From Cystobacter fuscus (GTDB lineage Bacteria > Myxococcota > Myxococcia > Myxococcales > Myxococcaceae): a stretch of 64,000 nucleotides of DNA. The first letter of the stretch is position 1; the number at the start of each line of letters is the position of its first letter. The stretch covers positions 1,984,001 to 2,048,000 of the forward strand of contig NZ_CP022098.1 of NCBI RefSeq assembly GCF_002305875.1, written 5' to 3'. The position numbers and the translations under genes are program-made. Shown in pieces: positions 56,616 through 64,000 of this stretch. The notes below the pieces were generated by a model. It did not search any database and was not told where the DNA came from. It saw only the letters and a program-made list of their open reading frames with translations.

Positions 56616-57353
56616 CTACTTCTTCCCCGGGATGATCTTGTCGCTCAGCTTGTCGACGACCTCCGCCAACTTCGAGGTGATCTTCACCAGGTTGGTGGCG
56701 GGGTCCTTAAGACCCAACATCGTCTTTCGGAGCGATGCATCCCACCAGTTGGGCAGCACCATGCGCTCGGCTACGCGCATCACGGAGTAGATGAACAGCA
56801 TGAACGCCGCAGAGATGCAGGCATGCACGAACAGCTTCGCGAGAGCGAAAATCTCTTGCTCTGGACGAAGAGGCGCCTGCAGCGCGTCGAGGGCCTTGAG
56901 CGACCAGACGAAGAAGCCCGTCGCAGCGGCAATGCTCCCAGCTCCAAGCAGGTAACCGATGAGCCGGCGTCGAGTGACGACGGCCAACTGGGCCTGCGTC
57001 TCATTCTCCTTATTGGGTGAAGACTTTTCGTAGCCCAGAAGTCCTTCTGCTTGGGCACGCCTTTGATCTGCCGGCAGCAGCGGCTCAGGTAGCGTAGGCG
57101 CGCCGGTGGACGTTGGGACCGCAGCGCCCGCCGCTGCTTGCAATCCCGTGGCGGTGGAGGTGGAAGCCGCTGGGAGCGAAGGGGGCGGAGGGGGCGGAGG
57201 GGACTGCAACGCAGCTTGCGTTGGTGCCGGCGCAGCGGGCGGCCCGTTGACCACCGGCGACATACCTCCGGTCTGAGGTAGCGGGGGCTGCCCGGCCGAT
57301 GCTCCGCTGCCAAGCTGAGCCCCTTGATGCCGACGCTTGGACTTCTTCACCAT
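56616..57353 (-). CDS. two-span membrane protein with proline-rich N-terminus
   Basis: 245 residues. The ATG at 57353 overlaps the ImmA/IrrE stop (TGATG), so the genes are coupled. Residues about 10-110 are Pro/Ala/Gln-rich, including a run of seven prolines and TGLQAAAGAAVPTSTGAP. Two membrane helices follow (YLLGAGSIAAATGFFVWSL, FVHACISAAFMLFIYSVMRV), then an amphipathic tail LVKITSKLAEVVDKLSDKII. No family match. Because ImmA/IrrE peptidases usually act on a partner protein, this product could be its substrate or membrane anchor (inference). Confidence 0.6.
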   Translation of the reverse strand: MVKKSKRRHQGAQLGSGASAGQPPLPQTGGMSPVVNGPPAAPAPTQAALQSPPPPPPPSLPAASTSTATGLQAAAGAAVPTSTGAPTLPEPLLPADQRRAQAEGLLGYEKSSPNKENETQAQLAVVTRRRLIGYLLGAGSIAAATGFFVWSLKALDALQAPLRPEQEIFALAKLFVHACISAAFMLFIYSVMRVAERMVLPNWWDASLRKTMLGLKDPATNLVKITSKLAEVVDKLSDKIIPGKK

Positions 57354-57868
57354 CAATAGCCCGCCATGTTCTCAAGCCGGATTCTCATCGCGGCTTCAGA
57401 CACCTCGAAGGCGCTGGCCAGTACGCTGACTCTTGGGCCGTACTCATCGACGTAGGCCTCAAGCATCCGAAACGGCATCAGCAAGCTGGCGGCGTAGTTG
57501 TTCGCCTCAACTTCCTTTCTGCTGCCTGCGAAGCTGACATCGCGGTAGGTCTCCTCCTCGGCGTTGTGGAGCATGAGGTGACCTATCTCGTGGGCAAGGG
57601 TGAACCGCCGCCGAACATAGGACTCGTCATTGGCGACCCAAATGTCCGCGCGGTTGGGGGGCGTTATCTTGACCGCTCCCGACCAACCGGCGTTCTGAAC
57701 GTAGTTCAGATGCACCCCGAGCCACTCCACAATGTCCTCGATGGGAACCGGCGGTTGATGGATACCAAAGGCCTGAAGAAGCTGGCTTGCGGAGGCCCGT
57801 TTCTCCCGCATCACCCTCCACTGCGGCTTCCTCAAGGAAATCGTCTTGGCGGTGAGGTCAGATCGCAT
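57353..57868 (-). CDS. ImmA/IrrE family metallopeptidase
   Basis: 171 residues. The zinc site is FTLAHEIGHLMLHNAEEE (HEIGH, 93-97), with the third ligand in RKEVEANNYAASLLMP. The N-terminal part (ASQLLQAFGIHQPPVPIEDI, VEWLGVHLNYVQNAGWSGA) is typical. These peptidases cleave XRE-type repressors to trigger induction of mobile elements or stress genes. The XRE gene at 55665 and the membrane protein just downstream are candidate targets. A dyad TCCCA-AATTA-TGGGA lies at 58035-58049, about 170 bp upstream. Confidence 0.87.
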   Translation of the reverse strand: MRSDLTAKTISLRKPQWRVMREKRASASQLLQAFGIHQPPVPIEDIVEWLGVHLNYVQNAGWSGAVKITPPNRADIWVANDESYVRRRFTLAHEIGHLMLHNAEEETYRDVSFAGSRKEVEANNYAASLLMPFRMLEAYVDEYGPRVSVLASAFEVSEAAMRIRLENMAGY

Positions 57869-58500: not shown

Positions 58501-59769
58501 TCACGGGCCGCCATCCATGGTGGCCCGGAGAAGGCGCCCAATGCCCTCGAGCAGCCGGTAGAACATGTACTCCGGTACCGGCCCGAACGCCTTGAAGCTG
58601 GAGGCCACTCGCTCCACCTGCTTGCGTGGCCCGTGCACCAGCAGCGCGAGGAAGCCGTAGGCGAGGTGGGTGAGCTGCACCATCCGCTTCAGCCCCGTCC
58701 ACGTGAGGGCGCGCACGTCCTCCAAGTCGAAGCCCTGCTTCGTGAAGCGGTTGGCCTCCTCAATTCCCCACCGCTCCAGATAGATGTCCACCACCCGGCC
58801 GGCGTCCGCCTTCGTCTGCACGTCCTCGGTGGTGAGAATGACGAGCGGCTTCATCCCCAGGCCGCGGGCGACGACGAGGGAGTAGCGCGTCTCGCCCTGC
58901 TTCTTCTCCGCGGGGCGACCTCCTGGCGTGTACTCGGGCAGGTGCACGTCGCGGACGAAGCCGAGCTGGAGTTCCTTCTGCCTCCAGCCCATGCCCTCGC
59001 GGCGACGGAACTTGATGCGGTGGGCGTGGGGCTGGGGCAGTAGCTCCACCAGCTCGCTCACCTTCATCTTCCCCTCGGGGGAGTGGAGGAAGCGGTCATT
59101 GCTGAGCTTGAGTCGTACCGCGTAGCGGATGCCGAGCTCGTCGAGGCGCTTGAAGAAGATGTGCCCGTCGAAGCCCGAGTCGAAGACCCAGAAGGCGTCT
59201 TTCGGTACATGCGGGCGCACGGTGGTGACTGCGTCGATGGTGGTGGCGTTCTGACTCTTGAAGCCCGGTGCGGCCTGCGAGAAGAGCCGGGACAGAAGCG
59301 GCAACCGCCTCCCGCGCACGCCCACGGCCTCCACGGAGACAACCTGGTACCCGTTGACGATCTCGTCTCTGGAGCCGTCATGGACCTTGTAGAGGTGCGG
59401 CATTTTTCGGGCGCGCGGCTTGGCGATGTCGGTGAGATCCACCGCGATGACGGGGCGCGGGTAGCGCTCGTCCCGGAGGATGGGCGCGACGAGCTGCAGG
59501 TAGTCCTGCTCCACCGCCACGTCGTCGTAGCGCTCGTTGGCCAAGTTGCGCGAGAGGCGCTTCTCCGTGTGGATGAGGCGGCTCGGCTCATTGAGGGCCC
59601 GGCCGATTTGAGAGAGGAGGACGCTCCGCTTCTCCACCAGTCCGAAGAGGGCCTCGCGCAGAAAGCGGCGGCACGGCCTGTACAGCCGTCCACCCACTTT
59701 CTCCACGTAGGCGTCGAAACGCTCGGGAATGGACTTCTCTCGAGGCACACCTCTCCCGGCGCTGGACAC
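58501..59769 (-). CDS. IS4 family transposase
   Basis: 422 residues. The DDE residues sit in VIAVDLTDIAKPRARKM (first Asp), FWVFDSGFDGHIFFKRL (second Asp) and the IS4 signature YLERWGIEEANRFTK, which fits Y-(2)-R-(3)-E-(6)-K exactly. The N-terminal helical part contains ALNEPSRLIHTEKRLSRNLA, typical of this group. The gene is open and of normal length, so the product could be active. I could not find convincing terminal inverted repeats, so the element's borders are not called. Confidence 0.88.
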   Translation of the reverse strand: MSSAGRGVPREKSIPERFDAYVEKVGGRLYRPCRRFLREALFGLVEKRSVLLSQIGRALNEPSRLIHTEKRLSRNLANERYDDVAVEQDYLQLVAPILRDERYPRPVIAVDLTDIAKPRARKMPHLYKVHDGSRDEIVNGYQVVSVEAVGVRGRRLPLLSRLFSQAAPGFKSQNATTIDAVTTVRPHVPKDAFWVFDSGFDGHIFFKRLDELGIRYAVRLKLSNDRFLHSPEGKMKVSELVELLPQPHAHRIKFRRREGMGWRQKELQLGFVRDVHLPEYTPGGRPAEKKQGETRYSLVVARGLGMKPLVILTTEDVQTKADAGRVVDIYLERWGIEEANRFTKQGFDLEDVRALTWTGLKRMVQLTHLAYGFLALLVHGPRKQVERVASSFKAFGPVPEYMFYRLLEGIGRLLRATMDGGP

Positions 59770-60431: not shown

Positions 60432-61010
60432 CTACGCCTTCAGCCACAACTCCTCGGCACTTTGCGTCCCAGAGGGAGCGGCCTCTTGTGCAGCGAGAGC
60501 CTGTTGAAGGTCTCGCAGCTTCCTGACGTCCTGGATGTACGCAGAAAGTTCTGCGGTTGGGAACTTTGGCCAGCGCAGGAGCGTACGAGTGAAGGCGTAG
60601 CCGTATAAATCGAAGATTTTCTTCAGGCGCTGCACGGCCGGCGTTCCGAGCTCATCCACGAAACGTTTCGGGGGCTGTGGGTCCATTTCGGATGACCCGG
60701 GGACGCTGCTCGCAAAGACAGCAATGTCGTTATTGTTTCGGTGAGGCCAGAAATCTGGCCACGCCAAGATTCCTTTGGCATCGCGCTCCATGTCAGCCGT
60801 AATAATGGCGACATCCTTCTTGAGCCCCACAAGCCGCCCATGTTCATGAAGCACACGTGTACGCGCTGGATCCCCGTTTACAACGACGTCATGAGCCGTG
60901 TGCTCGCATGCCCTTCGGAACGCCCTGGTGACGTCAATCGCCAGTATTTCCGAGGCGGAATTGAGCCGCATGCGTATCCGCGTGATCTCAGCCTCCAGAT
61001 TCGAATTCAT
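60432..61010 (-). CDS. hypothetical protein
   Basis: 192 residues from the ATG at 61010. The sequence is helical with charged N-terminus (NLEAEITRIRMRLNSASEI), then VTRAFRRACEHTAHDVVVNG, DVAIITADMERDAKGILAWP and FVDELGTPAVQRLKKIFDLY; the C-terminus is a helix rich in Gln/Ala. No signal peptide or membrane helix. I do not recognise the family. Lower GC than its neighbours and rarer codons point to recent acquisition. Nearest neighbours are mobile-element parts and the three-dyad region past its 3-prime end. Confidence 0.6.
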   Translation of the reverse strand: MNSNLEAEITRIRMRLNSASEILAIDVTRAFRRACEHTAHDVVVNGDPARTRVLHEHGRLVGLKKDVAIITADMERDAKGILAWPDFWPHRNNNDIAVFASSVPGSSEMDPQPPKRFVDELGTPAVQRLKKIFDLYGYAFTRTLLRWPKFPTAELSAYIQDVRKLRDLQQALAAQEAAPSGTQSAEELWLKA

Positions 61011-61221
61011 GAAGGTCGGCGTAGCACGGCCTGCTGACCAACAGCGGTTTCGGGGACACCCTTTCGGGACCCTCGATGCACCCATGCTGCCGTCTATGCC
61101 TTGTGGAACTCCGTCAGGGCGCGCTGCCAGCTACCAGCAGAGCACAGGCAAGGGCCCCGAGACTGGCACGTCAGGTACGTGATAAAACTTGAGGTGGCAG
61201 GTCGCGTTACCCGCCACCTTC

Positions 61222-61313: not shown

Positions 61314-61378
61314 CTCGGGGGCGTCAAGTCCTGTCCGATCCTGTAGGCTGGAACCCTCCTCGATCTGGAGGGTGCCCC

Positions 61379-62563
61379 ATGGCAACTCGCCTGACCTCTG
61401 CGGTCCTGCTCTTGGCCCTGCTCAGTGCGTGCGCCACCCAGCGTGTGGTCCGCCTCGACACGGGGCAGGGGGAACCCCTGGAGTACAAGCCGCCCACCTT
61501 GCCTCAGTCCGTGAAGGTGGACGCGGAAGCGTTCGAGGAAGCGTTGACGCATATGGTGCTGAATGCGCCCCTCACTCTCCGCCCACCCCAGCACGGTGGT
61601 CTGGTGCTCGCCTCCTACCCAGGCAACGACGAGGCCCCTCGCTGGCAGCGCCTCATGAGTAAGCGCTACGGCGGCCTCTGCGAGCCGGGCCAGCGGACGG
61701 AAACCTGCCTCGCCCCGCTCGACGACGTGATGGGCCTGAGTGAGTGGGACAAACTGGGCGTGGCCCTGGGCCTGCCGATTGATCCCCTTAAGGAGAGCAT
61801 TGCCAGGGCGGTGGAGAAGACGCTGGCCCCTCAGCTCTTCTACACCGTCATTGCGACGGGGCTGGTCACCTGGGCCGTCCTGGCGGTCAACCCCGAGCCC
61901 GTGTTCACCAAGGCGGCGGCAATCGTTTCGGCGCTGCTGTTGATCTACCTGGGAGTGGAGACGTTCCTGGAGGTGGTGGACGCGAGCCGGGAATTGAAAT
62001 GGGCCAGCGACCGGGCCATGACCTGGGAGGAGTTGGAGCACGCCAGCAAGCGCTTCGCCGACCGGGTGGGGCCGGAGGTGGCCCGCGTCTTTGTCCTCGC
62101 GGTGACGGTGGTGATGAGCCACGGCATGACCGGGGGCTCGGCATGGCTGGCCTCAAGACTGCCGATGCTGCCCAACGTCGCGGAGGCGGCGGCACTAGGG
62201 GCCGAACCACTGCGCCTCACACTTTCGGAGATAGGACAGGTGCGCACGGTGGCGGTTTCCGCCGAGGGCACTATCACCATTCTCCTGGCTCCCACGGCGG
62301 TGGCCATGACGGGCAAGGGGCCCGGTGGTGGCTCGAAGCAAGAGCAATACAAGACGCCCAAGTCTGGCGTCAGCGGGAAAGAGGGCGCCAAGGATGTGCC
62401 AAGCTGGGCGAAAGGTGAACGGCCCAAGGTTGATGAGAGTGGCAAGGACTTCGCCAAGAGGTTGTTGGACAAGAAGTATGGGGAAGGGAGCTACGACAAG
62501 GGTCCTGGGAGTGAATTCAACAAGATACAAAAATGGGGAGACCGCGCATTCGAGAACCCATGA
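61379..62563 (+). CDS. SitA-like polymorphic toxin lipoprotein
   Basis: 394 residues; GGAGGG precedes the ATG. The lipobox is LLALLSAC (Cys18). The constant N-terminal part (RVVRLDTGQGEPLEYKPPT, FEEALTHMVLNAPLTLRPP, LDDVMGLSEWDKLGVALGLP) and a long hydrophobic region (about 155-205, VIATGLVTWAVLAVN ... ALLLIYLGVETFLEVV), then VFVLAVTVVMSHGMTGG, recall the SitA lipoproteins that myxobacteria pass between cells by TraA/TraB outer-membrane exchange. The variable C-terminus after GGGSKQEQYKTPKSG is a toxin-like domain (KDVPSWAKGERPKVDESGKD, FAKRLLDKKYGEGSYDKGPG, SEFNKIQKWGDRAFENP) also seen at the ends of Rhs-type toxins. The DUF7336-like gene 9 bp downstream is the expected antidote. Target unknown. 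Confidence 0.75.
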   Translation: MATRLTSAVLLLALLSACATQRVVRLDTGQGEPLEYKPPTLPQSVKVDAEAFEEALTHMVLNAPLTLRPPQHGGLVLASYPGNDEAPRWQRLMSKRYGGLCEPGQRTETCLAPLDDVMGLSEWDKLGVALGLPIDPLKESIARAVEKTLAPQLFYTVIATGLVTWAVLAVNPEPVFTKAAAIVSALLLIYLGVETFLEVVDASRELKWASDRAMTWEELEHASKRFADRVGPEVARVFVLAVTVVMSHGMTGGSAWLASRLPMLPNVAEAAALGAEPLRLTLSEIGQVRTVAVSAEGTITILLAPTAVAMTGKGPGGGSKQEQYKTPKSGVSGKEGAKDVPSWAKGERPKVDESGKDFAKRLLDKKYGEGSYDKGPGSEFNKIQKWGDRAFENP

Positions 62564-62572
62564 GGGCGTCCC

Positions 62573-62809
62573 ATGACACACGTGTATGTCCTTCAGCATG
62601 TGCATGCAGCTCCAAACGGAGAGGAGGATATCAAGCTCATTGGCGTGTACGTGACCGAGGCAGATGCCCAGGCGGCTGTTTCCCGTCTGCGCCAACAGCC
62701 AGGCTTCCGGGAGCACCCGGAGGGGTTTCACATTTCTCGGTACGAACTCAACAAGGACCACTGGACCGAGGGGTTCATTGGATGGGATGACGCCCTTGAT
62801 GAATCATGA
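62573..62809 (+). CDS. DUF7336-like probable immunity protein
   Basis: 78 residues: HVYVLQHVHAAPNGEEDIKL, IGVYVTEADAQAAVSRLRQQ, PGFREHPEGFHISRYELNKD, HWTEGF. The compact alpha/beta pattern, with V-Y-V-L-x-H at the start and W-T-E-G-F near the end, matches small DUF7336-type proteins found after polymorphic toxins. No signal peptide, so it acts in the cytosol, where the transferred toxin domain would work. It starts 9 bp after the SitA-like gene and is surely cotranscribed. Confidence 0.78.
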   Translation: MTHVYVLQHVHAAPNGEEDIKLIGVYVTEADAQAAVSRLRQQPGFREHPEGFHISRYELNKDHWTEGFIGWDDALDES

Positions 62810-63210
62810 ATCCATGGGAGTCGAAGCTCTCGTCCGAGCGATAGCATTCAGGTCTTCCGGATGGTTGGAGGTAGGCGATGGGTTGGGGCCGTCACGCTGC
62901 CCCACAAGCCCAATTGAGTCCAAATCTGGTCCGACAAGAACCGATTGGGTCCCCTGATGCGGTGACCGGTTATACTCGGGTTGTCGTGGCGTCCGGCATG
63001 CGCGCATGTGCCGGACGCAGCACGGACGTGGCCACGCCGCTCAGGCCCACCAGGTTGGGGAACACCGGGGAAGGTGTCAAACTCGACTTCCGCCATTTCG
63101 AGGAGGGCGAGCGAGGGAGCGCGGGAGGCGTAGGGAAGGGACGGCCACCGGACTGGGTTGGCGTAGGGGCAGGCCGCGGGGGAGCGGTCCCCGCGGCCCG
63201 CCCGTCCTGC
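62810..63210. other. gene-free stretch
   Basis: 401 bp separating the toxin pair from the convergent gene at the right edge. A GGTGTCAAACTCGAC motif at 63073 resembles the REP-like GGTGTCAAAGGACTCGA. Nothing else is recognisable. Confidence 0.4.
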
Positions 63211-64000
63211 TCAGGACGCCGAGCGCGGCTGCACGGTGAGGCTGTCGATGTTGACGTGGCCGCTGTCCTCGGGCCCGTACGCGTACGACACCGTGGTCAC
63301 TCCCGCGGGCAGCGCCACCCGCACCGTCTGCAGGCCCCAGGTGTCCCAGCCGCCGGTGGACGGCAGCGTGACCTGCTGTGCCGGCGCCGCGCCCACGGTG
63401 AGGGTCAGTGCCTTGTCCGACCCCGTCCCGTTGGCGTAGCGCAGAGAGAGCTCGTACGTGCCCGCCTGGGCGGCCTCGACCTGGAACCCGACGGCGGCGC
63501 CCTTCCGGTCGAAGCACGCGGCGAAGGAGCTGCCGGTGTAGCCCCCGTGGTCGGTGGCCGTGCACGCCCCGCCGCCGAGCACGGCGTCCTCGGCCTCCAG
63601 GGTCCGGTCCAGCAGCGGCTCGACCAGCGCGAGCAGGACCGAGCGGGCGTGCGTGCTGACATTGCTCGGCTTCGCCGCCGCCAGCACGCCGCGCACGGAC
63701 CAGAGCGCCGCGCGGACCTGCGCGGAGTCCCCTGCCTGCTGGGCTGCCGTGGCCGAGGCCAGCTGCGCCTGCAGGTCGCGGGCCGTGGCCGAGGCCACCT
63801 CCCCGCCGCGGGTCAGGGCGGCGAGCTCGTGCACGACCGCGTCCAGCCCGGCCGGCGAGTGCAGCCACTGGAAGAGCAGGTCCTCCAACTGCGCCTGGGC
63901 GGTCCCGTCGAGCTCGCTCTCCGGCGCGGTGTCGACCGCGGTCCGCACGGCCCGCAGGCGCTGCAGCGTCGTCGCGGCATCGCCTGCTGCGTCGGCGGTC
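63211..64000 (-). CDS. carbohydrate-binding-module protein, C-terminus (N-terminus beyond window)
   Basis: At least 262 residues, open to the right edge. The visible N-terminal part is helical and Ala-rich (AQLEDLLFQWLHSPAGLDAV, RDLQAQLASATAAQQAGDSA, SVLLALVEPLLDRTLEAED), perhaps a spacer. The C-terminal about 130 residues form a CBM6/CBM35-like sandwich: GYTGSSFAACFDRKGAAVGF, VEAAQAGTYELSLRYANGTG, GWDTWGLQTVRVALPAGV and GHVNIDSLTVQ. Such modules bind galactan, glucan or glucuronan chains, so a secreted glycoside hydrolase or lyase is probable. GC is very high, and the style resembles actinobacterial secreted enzymes. The catalytic domain is not in view. Confidence 0.75.
   Translation of the reverse strand, partial: TADAAGDAATTLQRLRAVRTAVDTAPESELDGTAQAQLEDLLFQWLHSPAGLDAVVHELAALTRGGEVASATARDLQAQLASATAAQQAGDSAQVRAALWSVRGVLAAAKPSNVSTHARSVLLALVEPLLDRTLEAEDAVLGGGACTATDHGGYTGSSFAACFDRKGAAVGFQVEAAQAGTYELSLRYANGTGSDKALTLTVGAAPAQQVTLPSTGGWDTWGLQTVRVALPAGVTTVSYAYGPEDSGHVNIDSLTVQPRSAS

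What the first reader, a model, noticed from the sequence alone, without database searches (positions are those of the whole stretch)
61379..62809. Sit-like outer-membrane-exchange toxin with DUF7336-like immunity
Seen: lipoprotein with a conserved N-terminal and transmembrane part and a swapped C-terminal domain found in unrelated toxin families; small immunity-like ORF 9 bp downstream. Sit toxins are described in Myxococcus; the toxin type here (KDVPSWAKGERP ... NKIQKWGDRAFENP) is not one I can assign a target to.
Basis: partly seen in the sequence, partly recalled or inferred. Interest (0 to 1): 0.6.

Follow-up and report, generated by a model that had tools for sequence, protein, structure and literature searches.

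The report
SitA5 kin-killing toxin and immunity gene
A myxobacterial gene pair encodes a lipoprotein toxin of a known family that is passed between cells by outer-membrane exchange, together with the small protein that protects its owner; the toxic tip (about 65-75 residues) and its antidote (DUF7336) are a widespread pair that the public family libraries do not yet name as toxin and immunity.

Summary
Window 61379-62563 (+) encodes a 394-aa lipoprotein that passes the NCBIfam SitA5 escort-domain model (238 bits, cut-off 160). A 78-aa DUF7336 protein follows 9 bp downstream (42 bits, cut-off 25). About 45 other loci in this genome carry the same escort domain, and the match ends near residue 320 because their C-terminal toxins differ.

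The C-terminal domain (about 65-75 aa) has no Pfam, NCBIfam, PHROGs, PADLOC or PDB match. Relatives end Rhs and pretoxin-HINT proteins in other phyla. All 14 loci with an intact domain have a DUF7336 ORF directly downstream; only broken copies lack it. In ten pairs the toxin is basic (pI 9.0-9.8), the partner acidic (4.7-5.3). No His or Cys is conserved. Best reading: an outer-membrane-exchange toxin with a probably nucleic-acid-directed payload, neutralised by DUF7336. Toxicity, target and immunity are untested. New member of a known kind.

The parts
61321..63066 (+). Mobile cassette: the block shared with a second genome of the same genus (97.3% identical), with unrelated flanks; with two other genera the shared block is 61336-62863 (87-88%)
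   Evidence: blastn of L105 against L106, L107 and L108
61379..62563 (+). sitA5-type toxin gene, 394-aa lipoprotein
   Evidence: NCBIfam NF050093 238.4 bits, cut-off 160; sequence
61379..61432 (+). Lipoprotein signal peptide and lipobox LSAC, acylated Cys18 predicted
   Evidence: sequence, hydropathy
61406..62128 (+). SitA5 escort domain (residues 10-250); similarity to paralogues runs on to about residue 320 (62338)
61832..61981 (+). Two hydrophobic stretches (residues about 152-171 and 173-201), predicted membrane-active part
   Evidence: Kyte-Doolittle over 19 residues above 1.6
62339..62560 (+). C-terminal toxin unit, 74 aa; conserved core 62378-62560
   Evidence: relatives at the C-ends of Rhs and HINT proteins in other phyla; AlphaFold2 model mean pLDDT 81, pTM 0.69
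62573..62809 (+). sitI candidate, DUF7336, 78 aa, pI 5.0
   Evidence: PF24024 42 bits, cut-off 25; downstream of every intact relative of the toxin domain

Best explanation
This is a sitAI cassette of the SitA5 family. The lipoprotein sits in the outer membrane and is passed to a TraA-compatible neighbour by outer-membrane exchange. Its escort domain then brings the C-terminal unit across the inner membrane (inferred from experiments on other SitA5 alleles). Inside, the small basic C-terminal domain poisons the cell, most likely by attacking a nucleic acid through a metal- and histidine-independent, Lys/Arg/Asp/Glu-based mechanism, RNA more likely than DNA. The DUF7336 protein stays in the cytoplasm of the producer and its clonemates and blocks the toxin by binding. 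Shown here: gene anatomy, family membership, traAB in the genome, modular swap, mobility, obligate pairing of the toxin domain with DUF7336, charge complementarity. Inferred: delivery, toxicity, nucleic-acid target, mode of immunity.
For: SitA5 escort model over cut-off. All 30 best loci in this genome also match it. TraA 1062 bits (cut-off 750) and TraB 960 bits (cut-off 700), with the 4-bp overlap known from M. xanthus (PMC3325183). Published SitA5 alleles carry swappable nuclease domains, act with TraAB and are modular (PMC8546572). The same toxin domain ends Rhs and pretoxin-HINT proteins. In the Bacillus protein the HINT end leaves only about 70 residues, so the domain is complete on its own. 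All 14 intact loci have DUF7336 next door; the two copies without it are disrupted: an internal TGA in L127, loss of the N-terminal part in L130. Toxin pI 9.0-9.8 against immunity pI 4.7-5.3 in ten of ten pairs. Changes between genomes are mostly silent (toxin core pN 0.013 against pS 0.087; SitI 0.038 against 0.175). Nine of 30 sibling toxins are AHH nucleases.
Against: No known nuclease family or fold matches the domain. The nuclease reading rests on charge, sibling payloads and precedent. A 65-75 aa domain is very small for an enzyme. DUF7336 also occurs without this toxin (Hymenobacter, Psychrobacter, Streptomyces plasmids), so its role may be wider than immunity. No SitB gene lies upstream, which the literature says is optional.
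Confidence: 0.62

Rival explanations
1. A SitA5 outer-membrane-exchange toxin whose small C-terminal domain is not a nuclease: it binds and blocks a cytoplasmic protein, or acts on a metabolite or nucleotide, and DUF7336 is still its immunity protein.
For: Very small helical domain, no fold match in PDB or BFVD, no conserved His or Cys, no known nuclease motif.
Against: Strong basic charge in every relative; SitA payloads described so far are reported as nucleases (PMC8546572); the invariant polar residues K14, K65 and D68 would suit catalysis.
Confidence: 0.27
2. A decayed cassette: the gene pair is kept by drift or only as an immunity gene, and the C-terminal domain no longer kills.
For: The closest paralogue appears frameshifted (L104), and remnants with an intact immunity gene exist in a related genome (L109).
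Against: The window copy is open, keeps all residues invariant in its relatives, and is present in four genomes with mostly silent changes.
Confidence: 0.07
3. Not a toxin: an ordinary outer-membrane lipoprotein followed by an unrelated small gene.
For: No direct assay; the target is unknown.
Against: SitA5 model over cut-off, polymorphic C-termini in about 45 paralogous loci, the same domain at the end of Rhs and HINT toxins, and the conserved DUF7336 neighbour.
Confidence: 0.03

Closest known systems
SitA5 family of outer-membrane-exchange toxins (Myxococcus; NCBIfam NF050093)
   Same: Lipoprotein signal, SitA5 escort domain over cut-off, modular C-terminal toxin, downstream immunity gene, host with traAB, many loci per genome, cassette in unrelated contexts
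   Different: Experimentally tested SitA5 alleles carry HNH or AHH nuclease domains (PMC8546572); this payload matches no described family in the libraries searched
Rhs and pretoxin-HINT polymorphic toxins with the same C-terminal domain (Variovorax, Kiloniella, Alcanivoracaceae, Bacillus, Pseudomonas phage records, Methylorubrum, Enterococcus raffinosus)
   Same: 67-72% identical toxin domain in the closest and down to about 47% in the furthest, plus a downstream DUF7336 gene
   Different: Delivered by another vehicle: Rhs/YD repeats or HINT instead of a SitA5 escort lipoprotein
DUF7336 (Pfam PF24024)
   Same: 42 bits, cut-off 25
   Different: Pfam gives no function; here it is proposed as an immunity protein for this toxin domain, and it also occurs without the toxin
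AHH nuclease payloads of sibling SitA5 toxins (PF14412)
   Same: Same escort domain and same genome
   Different: No sequence similarity in the toxin domain; no AHH motif, no conserved His here

Membership tests
SitA5 outer-membrane-exchange toxin | SitA5 escort domain | tested here: met
   NF050093 238.4 bits, cut-off 160
SitA5 outer-membrane-exchange toxin | Lipoprotein signal peptide with lipobox | tested here: met
   MATRLTSAVLLLALLSAC by inspection and hydropathy; no signal-peptide predictor was available
SitA5 outer-membrane-exchange toxin | Modular, polymorphic C-terminal toxin domain | tested here: met
   About 45 paralogous loci match up to about residue 320 and carry other C-termini
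SitA5 outer-membrane-exchange toxin | sitI immunity gene directly downstream | tested here: met
   DUF7336 ORF 9 bp downstream; conserved next to intact relatives of the toxin domain; protection itself not tested
SitA5 outer-membrane-exchange toxin | traA and traB in the same genome | tested here: met
   NF033759 1062 bits and NF033763 960 bits, 4-bp overlap
SitA5 outer-membrane-exchange toxin | TraAB-dependent transfer and killing of non-immune cells | not testable with these tools
   needs competition assays
SitA5 outer-membrane-exchange toxin | Accessory sitB upstream (optional, not defining) | tested here: not met
   no plausible + strand gene directly upstream; the literature calls it occasional
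DUF7336 (PF24024) | Score over the Pfam gathering cut-off | tested here: met
   42 bits against 25
AHH / HNH nuclease toxin | AHH or HNH motif, Pfam match | tested here: not met
   no Pfam match to the domain; no invariant His
Curated polymorphic toxin families held in Pfam and NCBIfam | Match of the toxin domain to a curated model | tested here: not met
   no match at E up to 10 in Pfam for the domain alone; in NCBIfam no toxin-domain match in the whole protein at E up to 1. Families not held in these libraries could not be tested

The most novel reading that the evidence does not exclude
The C-terminal domain is a minimal (about 65-75 aa) enzyme or inhibitor of a fold without solved relatives, acting without His or Cys, and DUF7336 is a dedicated immunity family for it, shared across three delivery vehicles (SitA5 lipoprotein, Rhs, HINT).
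Probability: 0.35. Interest if true: 0.55.

Novelty: new member of a known kind. Interest (0 to 1): 0.36.

Why it matters
It gives a function to try for DUF7336 and names a new small toxin domain that travels between SitA, Rhs and HINT carriers. Because an Rhs/HINT version and a myxobacterial version share the payload, one assay would cover several systems, and the target of this payload is open. It also documents about 45 SitA5-type loci together with traAB in one 12.35-Mb genome, in line with the barcode model of kin discrimination.

Tried and rejected
PA14 hits were first taken as TraA candidates; they are other proteins, and TraA was found through MYXO-CTERM plus OmpA instead. Scan of IMG/VR for the toxin domain found nothing. 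Foldseek on PDB and BFVD, VIA-align and HMMER on PDB gave no usable match for the toxin; for DUF7336 only weak matches (topoisomerase I parts, E 0.3 or more), not trusted. PHROGs gave only an unnamed family for DUF7336, PADLOC nothing for the pair. The 2019 paper listing about 40 SitA toxin types is not held, so this payload may already be listed there under some name. Ntox families of the 2012 survey were read for a motif that fits; none was clear, and it was a reading of passages only. No held paper names DUF7336.

Full report
What is there. The ORF at 61379-62563 (+) starts at an ATG with GGAGG upstream and encodes 394 aa beginning MATRLTSAVLLLALLSAC, a signal peptide with a lipobox. Its stop TGA is followed after 9 bp by the ATG of a 78-aa ORF, 62573-62809. 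The larger protein matches NCBIfam NF050093, SitA5 escort domain, with 238.4 bits against a cut-off of 160 (residues 10-250) and no Pfam model. The small one matches DUF7336, PF24024, with 42 bits against 25.

The family in this genome. The window is part of a 12.35-Mb single-contig genome. A search with the protein gave 52 matches, which after merging split ones are about 45 loci besides this one, the weakest of them uncertain. Nearly all full-length matches end near query residue 316-325. The 30 best all match the SitA5 model. Their C-termini differ: nine are AHH nucleases, one has the TreTu C-terminal domain, four end in a GKEWHHIVEQ-type sequence, others match nothing. The window's C-terminal domain occurs only once in the genome, and so does DUF7336.

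Delivery machinery. traA and traB were found at G000:C1 about 11,789,500-11,793,300 (locus L103). TraA, 706 aa, scores 1062 bits with NF033759 (cut-off 750) and has Cys-rich repeats and a MYXO-CTERM. TraB, 538 aa, scores 960 bits with NF033763 (cut-off 700) and has an OmpA domain. The two ORFs overlap by 4 bp, as described for M. xanthus (PMC3325183). traC was not searched. No sitB lies upstream; it is described as occasional.

Mobility. In a second genome of the genus (G074) and in two genomes of other genera (G079, G045) the same toxin-immunity pair lies in a block of 1.5-1.75 kb (87-97% identical) with no similarity in the flanks. The toxin core is 100% identical in G074 and 97% in the other two. 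A fourth genome (G044) holds only a toxin remnant with an intact immunity ORF. Five of the 147 genomes searched in the class have a match, the own genome included. Changes are mostly silent (toxin core pN 0.013, pS 0.087; immunity pN 0.03-0.04, pS 0.12-0.18; escort pN 0.10, pS 0.24-0.26). Silent divergence of toxin core plus immunity is lower than that of the escort domain (Fisher p 0.025 and 0.008), which hints that the 3' module moves on its own; the numbers are small.

The payload elsewhere. Relatives of the toxin domain (67-72% identity) were found in an Alcanivoracaceae MAG, a Planctomycetaceae MAG, Variovorax, Kiloniella and Bacillus. Others lie in two Pseudomonas phage records and in Moraxella, Methylorubrum and Enterococcus raffinosus plasmids. 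Where the carrier is complete it is an Rhs/YD-repeat protein, in the Alcanivoracaceae case with a pretoxin HINT domain, and in Bacillus a HINT end. After the HINT end the Bacillus copy has about 70 residues, so the toxin is complete at that size. The domain is rare: 1 of 369, 2 of 399 and 4 of 392 genomes in three samples, the query genomes included.

The pairing. All 14 loci with an intact domain (four SitA5 loci, L041-L045, L110, L111, L112, L113, L129; near-identical copies L124 and L125 not counted) have a DUF7336 ORF directly downstream. They are not all independent: the four SitA5 loci are one lineage, so 11 is the safer number. L129 was found with the toxin profile alone after the pairing had been noticed. 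Four disrupted copies exist. Two keep DUF7336 (L050/L109 and L131). Two lack it: L127 has an internal TGA and L130 has lost the N-terminal part. DUF7336 without the toxin occurs in Hymenobacter, Psychrobacter and Streptomyces plasmids. Toxin with antidote always, antidote without toxin sometimes, is what an immunity gene predicts.

What the payload may do. In ten pairs the toxin has pI 9.0-9.8 and the partner 4.7-5.3. Across ten diverse sequences K14, P21, P29, G35, A39, K65 and D68 (numbering of the 74-aa unit) are invariant, and D19, W23, Y47, E59, N61, G67, R69 and F71 nearly so. There is no conserved His or Cys, which speaks against HNH, AHH, EndoU, RNase A-like and Cys-dependent enzymes. 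The model is confident enough to use (mean pLDDT 81, pTM 0.69), mostly helical, and has no Foldseek match in PDB and none better than E 2.6 in BFVD. A small domain gives little power, so this is not proof of a new fold. DUF7336 is predicted as beta-beta-alpha-beta. Published SitA payloads are described as cytoplasmic nucleases. From this I infer a nucleic-acid target, with a metal-independent RNase first, at about two chances in three; the alternative is a non-nuclease payload.

Verdict. New are the payload family and the proposed role of DUF7336. Whether the 2019 survey of SitA toxins already lists this payload could not be checked.

Noticed in passing
window 62918-62961: A stretch of about 37-44 bp with an imperfect inverted repeat (CCCAATTG ... 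CGATTGGG) downstream of sitI recurs at four other places in the genome (86-97% identical); possibly a small repeat element or terminator.
   Followed up: partly
window 58501-59769 (-): DDE transposase of IS4/IS701 type (Pfam DDE_Tnp_1 over cut-off; NCBIfam IS701 below cut-off), about 1.6 kb upstream of the sitAI cassette.
   Followed up: no
window 57353-57868 (-): ImmA/IrrE-family peptidase (Peptidase_M78) next to a 246-aa ORF with a hydrophobic stretch (56616-57356) without a family.
   Followed up: no
window 60432-61085 (-): 217-aa ORF directly upstream of the cassette on the other strand, no Pfam or NCBIfam match.
   Followed up: no
window 63211-63948 (-): C-terminal part of a protein with CBM6/CBM35 and FIMAH domains; the frame is open beyond the window end.
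   Followed up: no
L104 1637-2807 (G000:C1 about 8583636): Closest SitA5 paralogue (60% identical escort) appears frameshifted near the toxin junction; a different toxin-like C-terminus continues in another frame.
   Followed up: partly
L044 901-1401; L113 3191-3629: Two DUF7336-like ORFs in tandem behind the toxin domain in Kiloniella and in Enterococcus raffinosus, perhaps stacked immunity genes.
   Followed up: partly
L119, L120, L121, L122, L123: DUF7336 genes on Hymenobacter, Streptomyces, Kitasatospora and Psychrobacter plasmids without a recognisable toxin domain nearby.
   Followed up: partly
L111, L125: Moraxella osloensis small plasmids carry the toxin domain in an ORF of about 109 aa with a signal-like N-terminus instead of an Rhs carrier.
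   Followed up: no
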